Origin: an uncultured Bacteroidota bacterium
Lineage (GTDB): Bacteria; Bacteroidota; Bacteroidia; Chitinophagales; Chitinophagaceae
Direction: 5' to 3'
DNA: 64,000 nucleotides
Assembly (NCBI GenBank): GCA_903839875.1
Contig: CAIMDZ010000039.1
Location: 16,275 to 80,274, forward strand
Position 1 is the stretch's first letter. The number at the start of each line of letters is the position of its first letter. The translations under genes and the position numbers were made by a program. Positions 33,388-40,847 of the stretch are shown in pieces. The notes beneath the pieces were generated by a model. It was not told the DNA's origin and ran no database searches. It was given only the letters and a program-made list of their open reading frames with translations.

Positions 33388-35613
33388 TCACCTAAGCATT
33401 TTTATAAGAGTATTTACTGCTGCAAGATTTTCAGGATAGTATATTGACTGGTACAGGTCTTCTTTTTCTTTTTGAGTAATATGAAAGTTAAGCGCGGCTG
33501 TTTTTTTCGATTCTTTCGGAACATATTGCAGCGTAACAAACTTTAATTTACCATTCATGCAATAGGGCGCAATATCCTTTGTGTATTCATGATTGTAGGA
33601 TTGCATGGCCTCCCATTTATTTTGAATTACGAAAACAGGATCTATTGCCATATTGGTTAATGATGACTGGGTGGAGTTGGAGCTGACATCATATTCACGG
33701 GTATCCCTTATCTGAAGGAAAATTGTTTGCCTCGTATTTTTCTGCAGCCAATCGCGCATGACGAATAAGTAACGGGCAGAAATATCGGTGCCGAAATTAT
33801 CGCTCAGGCCTGCATCCATAATATTCATATCAGGCCTGCTTGGTAGTTTTACAACAGGAAGCACAAACGGAAATGTTGCGTTCATCCGGAGAGCGGTAGT
33901 CAGGCGTAGATTGTATGGATTTTGCTGATCAAAAAATGCGGCGAAATCTACTGCGTCTATAGGTGGGGTTGGTTCGCTGAGCGAGTATTCGGGTTGGGTG
34001 AGATAACCCACAGGCTGGTTAGAGATAATAAGCTTTCTTCCATCATTAACGATAGTACCATTTATGAGCATGAGTGGAATTTCTCCCTTTGCTTCCCGTT
34101 CTTTAAAGTAGCCGATATTTTTATCAAGCAGACCGTCGGTATTTCGTATTAACTCCTGCTCCATAGCATATCCACGGTCGCGGGTATAAGAATAACCGGC
34201 CACCGTTATTCTGTTGAAAGGCGAAACAAGGTCTACGCTGGCAAGTGAGAAGATAATAGAGTTGAGCAGGTCCTTACCAATATTTTCCTGGTATTTCCGT
34301 TCATAAGGGTTAACAATTAAGCCCTGCAGGAAGGCATCGTGAATACTGCGCCAGTAGGCCGCGCCGATCATGCCACCCGAAGCCCCGGTCAATAAAACCG
34401 TACTTTTGAAAAGACGGCCCTTAGTAGCGCTATCTATATATTGCAGGGCGCGAAAAGTCCAATAGGCAGAACGTGAGCCACCGCCGCTTACAGAGATGAT
34501 TACCAGCGGGGGTAAAGAGGTATCGCCGAGGTTTTTATTTTTCCAAAGCTGAAGCCTTGCTTCTTCAAATTTTTTATGTTCCGCAAAACGCTTTGTTGTA
34601 AAAATATCATGCAAATGGATGTAATCATAAATTGGTTTCGTCCGTTCAGCGGTATGGTAATTAAGCCCGTAAGCAATGCTCCTGAGATCGAATAGTTTGT
34701 ATTTTACCATCAGCGATAACAGGATAAAGAATATTACCCATCCGAGGGCTTCCCAGCTTTTCAAAAAATATTTAAATGCCCCCACTACCCCCATTATAAT
34801 AGAGAAGAATAAAAGGAAACCGGCGCCTGCGGGCACTCTTAACAAAGGCTTTTCCATAAATGCACCCATGATTAAAAGCAACATGTAGGATATGAGTGCA
34901 GCGAATATTACATTTCTATGGTGCCGTCTAAGCACTGTATTCATAACCCGTGGATGGTAAGGCTCCAGGTCGGCGCTTTTTTCAACCCGTAGTTTACCGG
35001 ATATATAGGACCTGGCAGGAATTATATCAATTTCGTAATCCAGGGAGTCGTAAGGAATAATACCCCTGATACGCGATGGGTTGGTGATCTTTGATAAAAT
35101 AGTTTTAAAAAAATCGCGGCTCACCCTGAAAAAATAAATGAACGAAATAAGTATGATCACCAGCATGCCAAGGTAAAAACCGATTTGCTGCACCAGTATA
35201 TCCTCAAGGCTGGAGTGCTCATCGTGCCACTGAAAATGGATGGTGACCATAGAATAAAAAATAAGAAATGCTATAGGGATGATGGAATTGTTGTAAGAAT
35301 AAACAACAAAAGCATGTCTCGTGGCTCCCATATAGGGTATGCGTTTGCTGTGAATAATAAAGGTAGTGATGTGCCATGTCATGGTGAAAACGCACATGGC
35401 GCAGCCCAGCAGGAACATACTCATAAAACTGATATTGCCCAGATATTCAGGCGCCAGGAAAAGCGACGACGCCCCGAAGTGTGATGCGAAATTCCCCGTG
35501 ATGGTAAGCAATAAAATAAACCAGAACAGCAGCAGCAACTGGTACTTACGGAAATGAAGTAACAATAACTGTACCGGTAAGAAGAAGTAAATGCCGCTCA
35601 GCACCCGTTTCAT
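33388..35613 (-). CDS. Membrane patatin-like phospholipase family protein
   Basis: VSGGGSRSAYWTFRALQYID oxyanion motif, LTGASGGMIGAAYWRS serine motif, DAGLSDNFGTDIS acid motif; N-terminal TM segments. Confidence 0.8.
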   Translation of the reverse strand: MKRVLSGIYFFLPVQLLLLHFRKYQLLLLFWFILLLTITGNFASHFGASSLFLAPEYLGNISFMSMFLLGCAMCVFTMTWHITTFIIHSKRIPYMGATRHAFVVYSYNNSIIPIAFLIFYSMVTIHFQWHDEHSSLEDILVQQIGFYLGMLVIILISFIYFFRVSRDFFKTILSKITNPSRIRGIIPYDSLDYEIDIIPARSYISGKLRVEKSADLEPYHPRVMNTVLRRHHRNVIFAALISYMLLLIMGAFMEKPLLRVPAGAGFLLFFSIIMGVVGAFKYFLKSWEALGWVIFFILLSLMVKYKLFDLRSIAYGLNYHTAERTKPIYDYIHLHDIFTTKRFAEHKKFEEARLQLWKNKNLGDTSLPPLVIISVSGGGSRSAYWTFRALQYIDSATKGRLFKSTVLLTGASGGMIGAAYWRSIHDAFLQGLIVNPYERKYQENIGKDLLNSIIFSLASVDLVSPFNRITVAGYSYTRDRGYAMEQELIRNTDGLLDKNIGYFKEREAKGEIPLMLINGTIVNDGRKLIISNQPVGYLTQPEYSLSEPTPPIDAVDFAAFFDQQNPYNLRLTTALRMNATFPFVLPVVKLPSRPDMNIMDAGLSDNFGTDISARYLFVMRDWLQKNTRQTIFLQIRDTREYDVSSNSTQSSLTNMAIDPVFVIQNKWEAMQSYNHEYTKDIAPYCMNGKLKFVTLQYVPKESKKTAALNFHITQKEKEDLYQSIYYPENLAAVNTLIKMLR

Positions 35614-35749
35614 TTGTCCAAATCTGTTTAAATGTCAAACTACATAAAATTTTTTGAATTCAGGAATAGGGATATGCTATAAAGGGAAAATTAGTGGGTG
35701 AAGCTATGAAAAATGGTGTACTTAGCTACAGTGCTACTATTAAGCATCT

Positions 35750-35962
35750 GTTGCCACGCTCGCTTGTACGTTCAGGGCTTCTGTCATCGTGAGCACAGTC
35801 GAACGGCTGCCCTGAGGAATCGAAGGGTCACTCCCTTCAAGGTTCAGGGTCCTATTGGGCAACCCCTTATTGCGCCAGCAAATCCTACATAACACGCAGC
35901 ATAGCCAACTCCCAACTCGTTCCCTTTTTTCAAGGGAAGGTGCCGAAGGCGGAAGGGTCAAA
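35750..35962. repeat. Composite dispersed repeat, copy 2 (upstream of DUF559 gene)
   Basis: Same block order as 9052-9182, with an extra gtcatcgtgagcacagtcgaac insert. Confidence 0.85.
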
Positions 35963-36021
35963 GAGGGGTGGCCTTTAGGAAGAGGTGATTTTTTTATTAA
36001 ATTCGAGAAAAAATACGTCCC

Positions 36022-36393
36022 ATGGAACCTAAAAAAATCCATTCGCTCCCTACACTCAAAGAAAAACGCACCACCCTCCGAAAAACCCTTACCCCTGCTG
36101 AAGCCCGCCTATGGAGTGAATTGAAAAACAGCCAACACCAAAACCGCAAATTTATCAGGCAGCACAGTATAGAAAAATATATTGTTGACTTCTATTGCCC
36201 CGGTGAAAAATTGATAGTTGAACTCGATGGCCAGGTCCATTTTAATGATGAAGCCTTCGAGTACGATACTCGGAGAACCAAACGGCTAAATGAACTTGGT
36301 TTTAAGGTAATCAGGTTTGAAAATAAGTTCGTCTTTCAGCAACTCGAATGGGTGCTATCCGAAATTGCCTCCCATTTTAAAAATGAAACGTAA
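36022..36393 (+). CDS. DUF559 (Vsr/PDDEXK-like endonuclease fold) protein
   Basis: LRKTLTPAEARLWSELKNSQHQNRKFIRQHSIEKYIVDFYCPGEKLIVELDGQVHF...RTKRLNELGFKVIRFENKFVF. Confidence 0.9.
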   Translation: MEPKKIHSLPTLKEKRTTLRKTLTPAEARLWSELKNSQHQNRKFIRQHSIEKYIVDFYCPGEKLIVELDGQVHFNDEAFEYDTRRTKRLNELGFKVIRFENKFVFQQLEWVLSEIASHFKNET

Positions 36394-36436
36394 CCACCTC
36401 CCCCTTCGGGTACTCCTCCTTGAAAAAAGGAGGAGA
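36391..36436. repeat. Inverted hairpin repeat directly at the DUF559 stop codon
   Basis: taaccacctcccccttcgggtactcctccttgaaaaaaggaggaga; reverse complement matches 9150-9182 and resembles 35918-35962. Confidence 0.8.
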
Positions 36437-36680
36437 GTTTTACTTATTATCCCACAAAACTATTTCCCGAAGGGAAAAAAACTCCCCTCTTGCCAAAGAT
36501 GGGACAGATTTATGAGGCGACTGCCGAATAAATCAGGGGTGATAAATGCTCACGCAGGTAAAAGAAGATCGGCCGGAACAAGGTCCCGCTCCTTCTGCTG
36601 GAGGCCGCGGTGATTTCAGGTGACATCTTCTCTCACTTCCACATTTATTTCCCTACCTTCACTTACTCTATGATATAATA

Positions 36681-37121
36681 GTGGAAGCAATCCGGAAATA
36701 CATACAAAAATTTGCAAAACTTCATGTGAGCCGGTCAAACGGAATTGCTCCGCACAAACCAATTCTGTTGCTTTCCATCATTCGCTTAATTGACCAAAAC
36801 GAGATCAGGGAAAATAAAATTTACATCACCCCACAATTGGTTGCATGTTTCAAAGAGGTATGGCATTCTTTGGTTACAACTGAAAGATTCACCGCTAATT
36901 TCTCACTTCCGTTTTTCCACCTCAAAACCGGTAAATTCTGGCACCTGCAAACATATCCCGGAGCCGAAATATTTGTAACGTCCTCTGGCTCCATCAGGAG
37001 CTTCGCAGCATTAAAGAATGCGGTTGCCTATGCCTGTTTCGATGCTGATTTATTTGATCTCCTGTGCAACAATATGAATCGCGCCTTTCTTCAAAAAGTT
37101 CTAGTGAGGATGCAAGGGTGA
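36681..37121 (+). pseudogene. N-terminal fragment of an HNH/sulfur-binding-type restriction endonuclease
   Basis: KYIQKFAKLHVSRSNGIAPHKPILLLSIIRLIDQNEI...FHLKTGKFWHLQTYPG; no HNH part. Confidence 0.6.
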
Positions 37122-37141
37122 AATTATTAAAACTTTATCCG

Positions 37142-37396
37142 TCAATTCATGCGTGACATGACACTAGTTCTAACCCCTATCTGCTGAGACAGCCAGTTAT
37201 TTTCGTCTGGGGCCAATTTATTCTCTCGGTAAACAATTCTAATATCTTTCTTTTGAAGATTCAATGCCTGAATATGTTCTTTGATCCGATTACAAAATTG
37301 CAAGTATGGACTTATGAGGATTAGCCTGTCTTTTGTATTTTTAATGAGTTCTTCTAAGTGATAAGAAATCATGGAAGTATTTAGAAATTTTGCCAT
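37142..37396 (-). pseudogene. Truncated PLD-like protein, N-terminus only
   Basis: MAKFLNTSMISYHLEELIKNTKDRLILISPYLQFCNRIKEHI...RIVYRENKLAPDENNWLSQQ; no HKD motif present. Confidence 0.6.
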
Positions 37397-37786
37397 TATG
37401 GTAGATTAATTTTTAGTTTTTTTATTGAAATGCAATATAGAGAAAAGAAACCCGGATGGCAATTAAATTTAATTATTGTCCCTATCAAAATAAAAATGTG
37501 AAACGCTCTTTTTAGCCCATGCCCGATCTTCGTATTTTCCCGAGAAATCTCTCACTCTTCCAAGCGTCGCGCTTGGTTCTATAATTTGCAAACGTGTCCC
37601 TTGCTATAAATAACTCACCGCGAATAGGTTGCACCACCTAACGGGGCGCATGAAAAGGGGGTAATCGTGGGGCTACACACTTTTCACCCACTACCGGGGT
37701 GATGACATGTTATTTTCTGTTAAACACATTCAGCGAAATCCATTAATCAGTTTAATCAGCGGTTCAGAAATTATATAATACCACCC

Positions 37787-38172
37787 ACTCCCATCCTATC
37801 ATAAAACTTTCTCATCGCACTCAGCTTGTATTTTACAAATAATTATCCACAAAATTTGGAAATGTCAATTATTATTCCTACATTTGTCGTTATTTTTTGG
37901 AGAATTGTATAAATTTTGAACAGTGTAAGAGCAGTCTTGGATGTCTCGCTGGCATTCATGGGCGTGAAATAGAAGTAGGGAATGTTTTATAATATATAAC
38001 ACAACTTCCGGATGATCTTCCGCTTCCAAAAGAAACCGGAAGAATTCCCGCAGTATCCAGAAACATAAATACTTGAAAATCAAACAAATTGTAAAATCCA
38101 GATGTTTTATCCCAATCCCGCAATTATTAAAAACCTATTACAGTTATGAATAACTAAATACAATATTTAAAT
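37787..38172. repeat. Dispersed non-coding module, copy B
   Basis: Collinear with 15412-15870; includes promoter TTTG (37855) N20 TACATTTG (37879). Confidence 0.8.
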
Positions 38173-38265
38173 AAAGAAAACGTTTGGTGAAACTATGCCG
38201 TCGAAGATTTATTCTCTTGTGAAGTCCCGGCACAAGGTCCCGCTTTTTTAACGTGATGAATTTAT

Positions 38266-38430
38266 TACATACATAACACAACTTCCGGTCCCCGACTGAC
38301 TTCCGGAAAAAACCGGAAGTAACCGGAAATATAACTGATTGAAAATCAATAAATGTATTAACAAACACACAATTTTTTACCTCCCGCAGTTTTTACCTAA
38401 CCACTGCAATTATGAATTATAAATAAAAAA
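38266..38430. repeat. Dispersed non-coding module, partial copy C
   Basis: acataacacaacttccgg...accggaagtaaccggaaatataactgattgaaaatcaa; hairpin ACTTCCGG-aaaaaa-CCGGAAGT at 38299-38320. Confidence 0.75.
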
Positions 38431-38457
38431 TTTCTGCAGAACTGTTCAATTTCTCAA

Positions 38458-38539
38458 CAACATTAGCGATGCAGAAAAATACCCGGCATTACAGCAGCAA
38501 AAACTTATCTGCATCATTCAGAAACGGTAGTTTGGTGCG
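38458..38539. repeat. Direct repeat, left flank of the DUF1016 islet
   Basis: Matches 40033-40115; identical 49-bp core acagcagcaaaaacttatctgcatcattcagaaacggtagtttggtgcg. Confidence 0.92.
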
Positions 38540-38921
38540 GTTTTGGATTTTTATGACAGATTTTGGGGTCGTATTATAATTTCTATACACGATTTAGGAT
38601 TACAAGATAGGCAGGATTATGGACACACTGCAAAAAGATCCACCATGTGCACAACATAAATTTTTTCAGATCAAGTTTGAAAGTGATGCATTTGTATATT
38701 ATTTGTATTTTGCTCTGTAATTTTGCCTGAGGAGATCCAGATATTTGAAAATGCAATTGGGGTATCAGACATTAATGAAAACAAATTCCGAGACACTGTC
38801 TCGGATATTTGAAAATGCAAAGTGTTTGAGGAAAAAATTAGCAAGTAGGATCTAGATATTAATGAAAACAAATTACGATACACTGTCTCGTAATTCTTAA
38901 AACTTAATATAAAGCAACAAA

Positions 38922-39917
38922 ATGCAAATACTATCCGATATACAACAGATACTAAGGCAGGCACAGCAAATGGTGGTGCGCCACATAAATAAGGCTATGC
39001 TGGAAGGATACTGGCAAGTGGGAAGGCGTATAGTGGAAGAGGAACAGCAGGGGGAAAGTAGGGCTGAGTATGGTAAGGGACTGATAATAAGCCTCTCAGC
39101 TGCGTTGCAAAAGGAGTTTGGCAAAGGGTTTTCTGAAAGGAACATAGAGCAAATGCGTTTATTTTATCTGGAATACCCAATTCCGCAGACAGTGTCTGCG
39201 GTTTTCCAAATTCCCGATTTTCAATTAAGCTGGTCGCACTACCAGATGCTGATGCGGCTGGATGATAAAAATGAACGTGCATTTTACGAAATAGAAGCCG
39301 CCAAAAATAACTGGAGCCTGCGGGAGCTGAAACGGCAGTTTGACAGCGCGCTGTATATGCGGCTGGCACTGAGCAAGGATAAAGAGGGCATAAAAGCACT
39401 GGCCGAAAAAGGACAAATAATAGAAACGGCAAAGGATGCAGTAAAGGACCCGTACATATTGGAGTTTTTAAACCTGACGGAGCATTACAGGTATTCGGAG
39501 AGCGACCTGGAGCATGAACTGATTGACAAACTGGAACATTTTCTGCTGGAGCTGGGAACGGGTTTTGCATTTGTAGCGCGGCAAAAACGGATAACAATTG
39601 ATGAGGAACACTACCATATAGACCTGGTTTTTTATAACCGGCTGCTTCGCTGCTTTGTGCTGCTGGACCTGAAAATAGGTAAACTAAGACACCAGGACAT
39701 AGGGCAAATGCAGATGTATGTAAACTACTATGACCGCCATGTAAAAACGGCCGATGAACATAAGACGATAGGCATTATACTGTGCAGGGACAAAAGTGAA
39801 ACCCTTGTAGAAATAACACTGCCACAAGATAATGACCAGATATTTGCGAGCAGGTATCAGACCCTGTTGCCAAGCAAGGAAGATTTGAAGAAATTGCTGG
39901 CGTCCAAAAACACGTAG
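38922..39917 (+). CDS. DUF1016/YhcG family PDDEXK nuclease-domain protein
   Basis: HINKAMLEGYWQVGRRIVEEEQ; LSWSHYQMLMRLDDKNERAFYEIEAAKNNWSLRELKRQFDSALY; HIDLVFYNRLLRCFVLLDLKIGKL. Confidence 0.95.
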   Translation: MQILSDIQQILRQAQQMVVRHINKAMLEGYWQVGRRIVEEEQQGESRAEYGKGLIISLSAALQKEFGKGFSERNIEQMRLFYLEYPIPQTVSAVFQIPDFQLSWSHYQMLMRLDDKNERAFYEIEAAKNNWSLRELKRQFDSALYMRLALSKDKEGIKALAEKGQIIETAKDAVKDPYILEFLNLTEHYRYSESDLEHELIDKLEHFLLELGTGFAFVARQKRITIDEEHYHIDLVFYNRLLRCFVLLDLKIGKLRHQDIGQMQMYVNYYDRHVKTADEHKTIGIILCRDKSETLVEITLPQDNDQIFASRYQTLLPSKEDLKKLLASKNT

Positions 39918-40032
39918 AGGGTGAGATATGTCCAGCAGCTTTTACTTTTTTGGGAAGACTGCGGTAAAAGATGCCTTTGAGTTAATATTCTTTATTAATC
40001 AAAGTCAAGCGAAATCTGACTATTGTTTGATG

Positions 40033-40115
40033 CAACATTAGCGATGCAGAAATATTCCGGGCCATCACAGCAGCAAAAACTTATCTGCATCATTCAGAAA
40101 CGGTAGTTTGGTGCG
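40033..40115. repeat. Direct repeat, right flank of the DUF1016 islet, overlapping the amidase 3' end
   Basis: See 38458-38539. Confidence 0.92.
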
Positions 40116-40847
40116 TGTTTTCCGGAGGTGTTCTTTGTCGAGGGTTATTGTATGGCAGGCAACTGTAACGGCCTGTTGCCAGATGGTTTCGCCGAGGGGG
40201 CCGAAGACGCTGCTTTCGCCTACATAATTAAACCCCTTGCCGTCTGTGCCTACGCGGTTTACACCCACCACGTAACATTGGTTCTCAATGGCGCGGGCCT
40301 GGAGGAGGGTTTTCCAGGCAAGGCTGCGGGGTTCGGGCCAGTTGGCTACGTAGAGCAGCACATCGTATTCATCGCCCTGGCTCCGGGCCCAAACGGGAAA
40401 GCGGAGGTCGTAACATACCAGCAGGTTGATGCGCCAGCCGTTAACGCTGACGATCAGGCGTTTTTCGCCGCGGGTATAGTGCTTTTCTTCATCGGCATAG
40501 GCAAAGAGGTGGCGCTTGTCGTAAAAACCAATGTGGCCGTCGGGCTGCACCCAGAGCATGCGGTTGAAGTATTTGCCTTCTTCTTCTATGATTAGGCTGC
40601 CGGTGAGAATGCAGCGGTGTCTGACCGCCATATCAGCCATCCATTTTACAGAAGTTCCATCCATAGGTTCGGCCAGCCTTTCGGGCGCCATGCTGAAACC
40701 GGTGCTGAACATTTCGGGGAGGGCTACTACCCTTTTGGGACCGGTAATGCCTGCCAGCATCTTTTCGTATTGCTGCAGATTGGCTGTTTTATCCTCCCAT
40801 ACTATATCTGGCTGAATTATCGTTATATGCAATTGTTCGTTGGGCAT
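40065..40847 (-). CDS. Carbon-nitrogen hydrolase, omega-amidase/YafV-like
   Basis: VVALPEMFSTGFSM; YDKRHLFAYADEEKHYTRG; LLVCYDLRFPVWAR; WPEPRSLAWKTLLQARAIENQCYVVGVNRVG. Confidence 0.93.
   Translation of the reverse strand: MPNEQLHITIIQPDIVWEDKTANLQQYEKMLAGITGPKRVVALPEMFSTGFSMAPERLAEPMDGTSVKWMADMAVRHRCILTGSLIIEEEGKYFNRMLWVQPDGHIGFYDKRHLFAYADEEKHYTRGEKRLIVSVNGWRINLLVCYDLRFPVWARSQGDEYDVLLYVANWPEPRSLAWKTLLQARAIENQCYVVGVNRVGTDGKGFNYVGESSVFGPLGETIWQQAVTVACHTITLDKEHLRKTRTKLPFLNDADKFLLL

What the first reader, a model, noticed from the sequence alone, without database searches (positions are those of the whole stretch)
38458..40115. DUF1016/YhcG nuclease islet between direct repeats duplicating the 3' end of an amidase gene
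The sequence caacattagcgatgcagaaa...cagcagcaaaaacttatctgcatcattcagaaacggtagtttggtgcg occurs at 38458-38539 and 40033-40115, with an identical 49-bp core. The right copy contains the last codons and stop of the convergent omega-amidase gene; the left copy is a gene-less duplicate. The 1.49 kb between them holds one complete ORF, a DUF1016 PDDEXK nuclease-domain protein. This is the arrangement left when a mobile element enters a gene's 3' end and regenerates it, as tyrosine-recombinase islands do at tRNA genes, but no recombinase is present. Inference: the DUF1016 gene may be a minimal, possibly self-mobilising or hitch-hiking islet.
Basis: partly seen in the sequence, partly recalled or inferred. 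Interest (0 to 1): 0.85.

Follow-up and report, generated by a model that had tools for sequence, protein, structure and literature searches.

The report
Nuclease gene with hidden DNA palindromes
A one-gene insertion of a candidate anti-phage nuclease sits at the end of an amidase gene between two copies of that gene's tail, and the nuclease gene, like relatives across many bacterial phyla, carries a DNA palindrome inside its coding sequence that codon choice shows to be maintained at the DNA level, for an unknown purpose.

Summary
In detail: an 82/83-bp direct repeat (49-bp identical core) flanks one intact DUF1016/YhcG gene, and the right copy is the 3' end of the convergent amidase gene. 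All 21 genus relatives checked have one amidase tail; in four, the patatin-like gene follows within about 110 bp. So DNA was inserted here, with a long target duplication. A self-mobilising islet is not supported: no recombinase, a single-copy unit, homology that stops at the ORF ends, and flanking repeats (15/102 DUF1016 genes, 9/452 neighbouring ORFs) that are as common around Abi_2 genes (3/13). Such insertions are already described for restriction-modification genes.

The surprise lies inside the gene. DUF1016 genes from many phyla, including E. coli yhcG, carry an in-frame DNA palindrome of about 25 bp, often in tandem, in a hypervariable loop. Of 121 genes, 37 have a perfect one with 12-bp arms (0.05 expected after synonymous shuffling). 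Arms differ between genes but covary, and the centre codon is CTG or GTG far beyond normal usage. The window's palindrome occurs once in its genome, so it is not a dispersed repeat. I found no description of it. A cis-acting DNA site is most likely; its function is untested.

The parts
38458..38539 (.). left copy of the direct repeat: gene-less duplicate of the amidase 3' end
   Evidence: alignment
40033..40115 (.). right copy of the direct repeat: last codons, stop and 3' flank of the amidase gene
   Evidence: alignment; amidase ORF
38922..39917 (+). DUF1016/YhcG (PDC-S02) PD-(D/E)XK nuclease gene, intact
   Evidence: PF17761 and PF06250; PADLOC PDC-S02; conserved D234, D249, K251
39183..39201 (.). 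perfect coding palindrome CCGCAGACAGTGTCTGCGG in the N-domain loop
   Evidence: single copy in the genome
38787..38805 (.). upstream non-coding palindrome TCCGAGACACTGTCTCGGA, similar to the second loop palindrome of the homologue L095
38869..38897 (.). second upstream palindrome, imperfect
   Evidence: tandem with the first (families D2 and D15)
40065..40847 (-). omega-amidase-like (CN_hydrolase) gene whose 3' end is the insertion target
33388..35613 (-). patatin-like gene (by motif, not tested), direct neighbour of the amidase in four relatives
37981..38433 (.). two units of a dispersed genomic repeat next to the left repeat copy; not specific to DUF1016
36022..36393 (+). DUF559 gene, elsewhere in the same larger insert

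Best explanation
A single-gene candidate defence nuclease (DUF1016/YhcG, PDC-S02) was acquired at the 3' end of an amidase gene. The insertion duplicated about 82 bp of the target, so the gene kept its end and a dead copy of that end was left on the far side (insertion shown by comparison with other species; the exact event, date and donor are inferred). No mobility enzyme is encoded and the unit has no conserved ends, so it probably arrived passively by illegitimate or homology-assisted recombination (inferred). Separately, the gene carries in its N-domain loop an in-frame palindrome maintained for its DNA sequence (shown at family level). The likeliest role is a dyad-symmetric cis site, acted on by the gene's own product or another DNA-binding protein for self-regulation or self-recognition (inferred, untested).
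For: Single amidase tail in 21 relatives and tight amidase-patatin spacing in four. Repeat far above chance. Repeats enriched around DUF1016 genes against neighbouring ORFs, with truncated copies of intact adjacent genes at L152 and L110. Palindromes: 45 with arms of at least 9 bp against 0.75 after synonymous shuffling; 37 perfect 12-bp-arm units against 0.05; centre codon CTG 61/67 and GTG 41/49 against 17% and 22% elsewhere, with the centre not used for selection; arms covary; present in distant members; private to the gene.
Against: No same-species empty site was available. The flanking-repeat enrichment is not specific to DUF1016 (Abi_2 3/13). Matching palindromes outside the gene are only weakly above chance (6 against 2.3 expected, at most 5 in 500 permutations). 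About a quarter of the genes have only weak palindromes or none. No binding or cleavage evidence exists.
Confidence: 0.55

Rival explanations
1. A site-specific islet: an integrase acting in trans inserted a small element at the amidase 3' end, the repeats being att sites that regenerate the gene.
For: Repeat at a gene 3' end with the gene restored; some DUF1016 genes overlap or directly follow an integrase or recombinase gene (L220, L222, L225, L249).
Against: No recombinase here, no conserved ends beyond the ORF, no other copy; repeats at other DUF1016 loci differ in length and sequence.
Confidence: 0.12
2. The left copy is a remnant of a local tandem duplication or of a recombination event with donor DNA that carried the amidase end, unrelated to DUF1016 entry.
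For: The region is a turnover hotspot with gene fragments and dispersed repeats; flanking repeats also occur at Abi_2 genes.
Against: The repeat brackets exactly one complete gene, and such brackets are enriched around DUF1016 genes against neighbouring ORFs.
Confidence: 0.25
3. The coding palindromes are a mutational by-product: template switching in hairpin DNA perfects inverted repeats in a loop that the protein does not constrain.
For: The loop is predicted to be disordered and is hypervariable; units within a gene resemble each other (2.2 against 4.2 differences in 7 arm positions); E. coli alleles gain and lose units.
Against: Position, reading frame and centre (CASTG) are kept across phyla, and the centre codon bias is not predicted by arm correction alone; neighbouring genes do not accumulate such palindromes.
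Confidence: 0.25
4. The palindromes act as mRNA hairpins that regulate translation or mRNA decay.
For: Arms covary as in a stem.
Against: Sense-strand G-U pairs are not favoured (30 G-T against 76 A-C mismatches; codon constraint confounds this); a central C:G pair in either orientation looks like double-stranded DNA rather than an RNA loop.
Confidence: 0.15

Closest known systems
Insertion of restriction-modification genes with long, variable target duplication (Nobusato et al. 2000; Furuta et al. 2010; both cited in PMC3031569)
   Same: A nuclease gene bracketed by long direct repeats derived from the target, without its own transposase.
   Different: Here a single DUF1016 gene without a methyltransferase; no same-species empty site was seen.
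PDC-S02, candidate single-gene phage defence (PADLOC); E. coli YhcG, COG4804
   Same: Same protein family.
   Different: The coding palindrome is not mentioned in the papers that I read; it was found here across the family.
Rickettsia palindromic elements and REP sequences
   Same: Palindromic DNA, for RPEs inside open reading frames (general knowledge of these elements).
   Different: Not dispersed: one copy in the genome, tied to one position of one gene family.
Operators inside coding sequence, as in lac or gal (general knowledge)
   Same: A dyad site in the coding sequence, with similar palindromes about 100 bp upstream at some loci.
   Different: Arms vary freely across the family, and tandem units with different arms occur in one gene.

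Membership tests
DUF1016/YhcG (PF17761 + PF06250), PDC-S02 | both Pfam domains over their cut-offs | tested here: met
   151 and 198 bits against cut-offs of 32.8 and 32.5; PDC-S02 at 7.6e-143
DUF1016/YhcG (PF17761 + PF06250), PDC-S02 | PD-(D/E)XK catalytic residues | tested here: met
   D234, D249 and K251 invariant in 56 sequences
DUF1016/YhcG (PF17761 + PF06250), PDC-S02 | anti-phage activity | not testable with these tools
Insertion with long target duplication | long direct repeat derived from the target flanks the inserted gene | tested here: met
Insertion with long target duplication | empty site with a single copy in a closely related genome | tested here: inconclusive
   single copy in 21 other species; no same-species genome available
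Integrase-type genomic islet | recombinase gene and conserved att ends | tested here: not met
   one complete ORF between the repeats; no homology beyond the ORF
REP/RPE-type dispersed palindromes | many dispersed copies in the genome | tested here: not met
   one copy with up to 2 mismatches, none in 34 relatives; about 930 kb of flanks nearly free of such palindromes away from DUF1016 genes

The most novel reading that the evidence does not exclude
DUF1016/YhcG nuclease genes share a built-in, rapidly diversifying DNA palindrome within their own coding sequence that is selected as DNA: a private cis site (self-recognition, autoregulation or cruciform target) whose sequence constrains the protein loop it encodes.
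Probability: 0.5. Interest if true: 0.8.

Novelty: new variant of a known kind. Interest (0 to 1): 0.6.

Why it matters
YhcG/PDC-S02 is a widespread nuclease family of unknown function, present in E. coli K-12 and listed as a candidate phage-defence gene. A palindrome under DNA-level selection at one codon position gives a direct experimental handle, since it can be recoded synonymously in K-12, and it suggests that the family handles palindromic or cruciform DNA, consistent with the resolvase-like nuclease prediction of Kosinski et al. 2005 (PMC1189080). The repeats suggest adding DUF1016 to the gene families that enter genomes with long target duplications.

Tried and rejected
Dispersed ~200-bp repeats as a DUF1016-specific cassette array: they lie at many other loci. 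REP/RPE-like dispersed palindromes: rejected. Upstream palindromes as remnants of a second DUF1016 gene: no convincing further DUF1016 similarity there. Distant E. coli search with a Pasteurellaceae DUF1016 gene: no match. Solved structure by sequence: none. Viral scan with the Rhodococcus protein: none. Break points at the yhcG palindromes in some E. coli strains lie next to transposase or IS genes and were not taken as evidence of palindrome-directed mobility.

Full report
Observation. The repeat is real: 38458-38544 and 40033-40121 align at 93% over 89 columns, with a local score of 69 against at most 16 in shuffled flanks. The right copy covers the last codons and stop of the - strand amidase gene (40065-40847; CN_hydrolase, NF007757). 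The left copy has no gene. Full-length matches occur only at these two places in the 5.29-Mb assembly. Between the copies lies one complete ORF with both DUF1016 domains and the conserved D234, D249 and K251. It matches the PADLOC candidate defence family PDC-S02 at 8e-143.

Empty site. The amidase was found in 35 of 41 genomes searched, the own one included. Each of the 21 genus relatives checked has one amidase tail. In G008, G017, G020 and G011 the patatin-like gene that lies at 33388-35613 in the window starts 75-105 bp after the amidase stop; in G021 it lies about 5.7 kb downstream. The window therefore carries a 4.45-kb insert (35614-40064) at a boundary that is tight in several relatives. 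The insert also holds a DUF559 gene and a weak restriction-like ORF and, left of the left repeat, units of a dispersed genomic repeat. The simplest order is amidase plus 33 bp plus dispersed repeats first, then DUF1016 inserted with target duplication. No same-species strain was available to prove it.

Is it a mobile unit? Homology between 38300-40200 and the nearest homologues (L095, L096, L179) covers the ORF and the palindrome units only. The upstream region is unique in the genome. There is no recombinase. Survey: 14 of 101 DUF1016 ORFs have a direct repeat of at least 25 bp within 600 bp on both sides, against 10 of 453 neighbouring ORFs. One of those controls proved to be a second DUF1016 gene, which gives 15/102 against 9/452, p=1e-6. 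Within 300 bp, by a different score, it is 8/101 against 7/452, p=0.002. At L152 and L110 the repeat is a truncated copy of an adjacent intact gene, as here. But Abi_2 genes show such repeats at 3/13, so the pattern is probably general for acquired genes. This is the insertion with long and variable target duplication described for restriction-modification genes (Nobusato 2000 and Furuta 2010, as cited in PMC3031569).

Palindromes. While comparing homologues I found that the loop between 'MRxFYLxY' and 'LSWSHY' is encoded by palindromic DNA. The window gene carries CCGCAGACAGTGTCTGCGG at 39183-39201. In 112 genes there are 45 odd palindromes with arms of at least 9 bp, against 0.75 (maximum 3 in 200 runs) after synonymous shuffling; those with arms of at least 7 bp cluster at 20-40% of the CDS. 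In 121 full-length genes, 88, 70 and 37 have units of at least 10, at least 11 and 12 of 12 pairs, against 7.0, 0.7 and 0.05 expected. All four Watson-Crick pair types occur at every arm position. Related genes show both-arm, amino-acid-changing substitutions that keep the palindrome, such as TACGCACTGCGTA in L087 and TACACACTGTGTA in L088. These counts are on units chosen for palindromicity. The least biased test is therefore codon choice at the centre, with the centre ignored in selection: CTG in 61 of 67 Leu codons (17% elsewhere in the same genes) and GTG in 41 of 49 Val codons (22% elsewhere). The central base is C or G in 158 of 182 units, in either orientation, as expected for a double-stranded dyad site. 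The genes are related by descent, so the p-values overstate independence, but 64 different left arms occur among 88 genes.

Breadth. The palindrome is present at the same place in all ten plasmid or phage records first fetched, including E. coli yhcG, Rhodococcus, Vibrio, Methylomonas, Cetobacterium and Citrobacter, and in seven more distant ones, including Wolbachia phage WO and Deinococcus. In E. coli yhcG the number and arms of the units vary between strains at one locus. About a quarter of the genes reach only 7-9 of 12 pairs or none, so it is very common rather than invariant.

What it is not. The window's arms occur once in its genome and in none of 34 genus relatives, so it is not REP- or RPE-like. 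About 930 kb of flanking DNA has almost no such palindromes away from DUF1016 genes. A few loci have a similar palindrome within about 130 bp outside the gene (L086, L069, L088, L133, L152 and the window), 6 against 2.3 expected and at most 5 in 500 permutations: suggestive only. G-U wobble is not favoured on the sense strand, though codon constraint confounds this.

Protein context. The predicted fold is of moderate confidence (mean pLDDT 70.6, pTM 0.44) and places the loop in a low-confidence stretch, residues 89-95 below 50. The nuclease domain is nearest NucS/EndoMS, weakly; Kosinski et al. 2005 predicted a resolvase-like nuclease (PMC1189080). A nuclease that acts on cruciform or dyad DNA would explain a site whose arms vary but stay palindromic; this is inference.

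Literature. Searches of the held open-access library for DUF1016, YhcG, the PDDEXK product name and PDC-S02 gave no title or abstract about such palindromes. I read passages of only a few of these papers, and subscription journals are mostly absent, so prior description cannot be excluded.

Verdict. The islet is a known kind of insertion. The coding palindrome is the surprising part; its DNA-level maintenance is well supported and its function is open.

Noticed in passing
L217, L218, L221, L245, L247: DUF1016 genes sit inside or beside type I restriction (hsdM/hsdS) and BREX (pglX/pglZ) operons, often overlapping the upstream stop codon by 4-11 bp.
   Followed up: partly
L220, L222, L225, L249: DUF1016 directly follows or overlaps an integrase or recombinase gene.
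   Followed up: no
L179:4228-4268: 41-nt perfect intergenic palindrome with core CGAGACACTGTCTCG, 1.6 kb upstream of the closest genus homologue of DUF1016.
   Followed up: partly
L179:4628-7097; window 37981-38433: Genome-specific dispersed repeats of about 200-280 bp, in tandem at many loci of G007 and G014 and at about 24 places in the own genome; function unknown.
   Followed up: partly
L113:5334-8945: Array of repeat, DUF1016, repeat, Fic-like gene, repeat, which looks like a cassette array.
   Followed up: no
L106:5064-7675: DUF1016 lies within tandem copies of a small GIY-YIG-like gene.
   Followed up: no
L234, L243, L235: In E. coli B and some other strains yhcG is broken directly after or at its last palindrome, next to a transposase gene or IS1.
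   Followed up: partly
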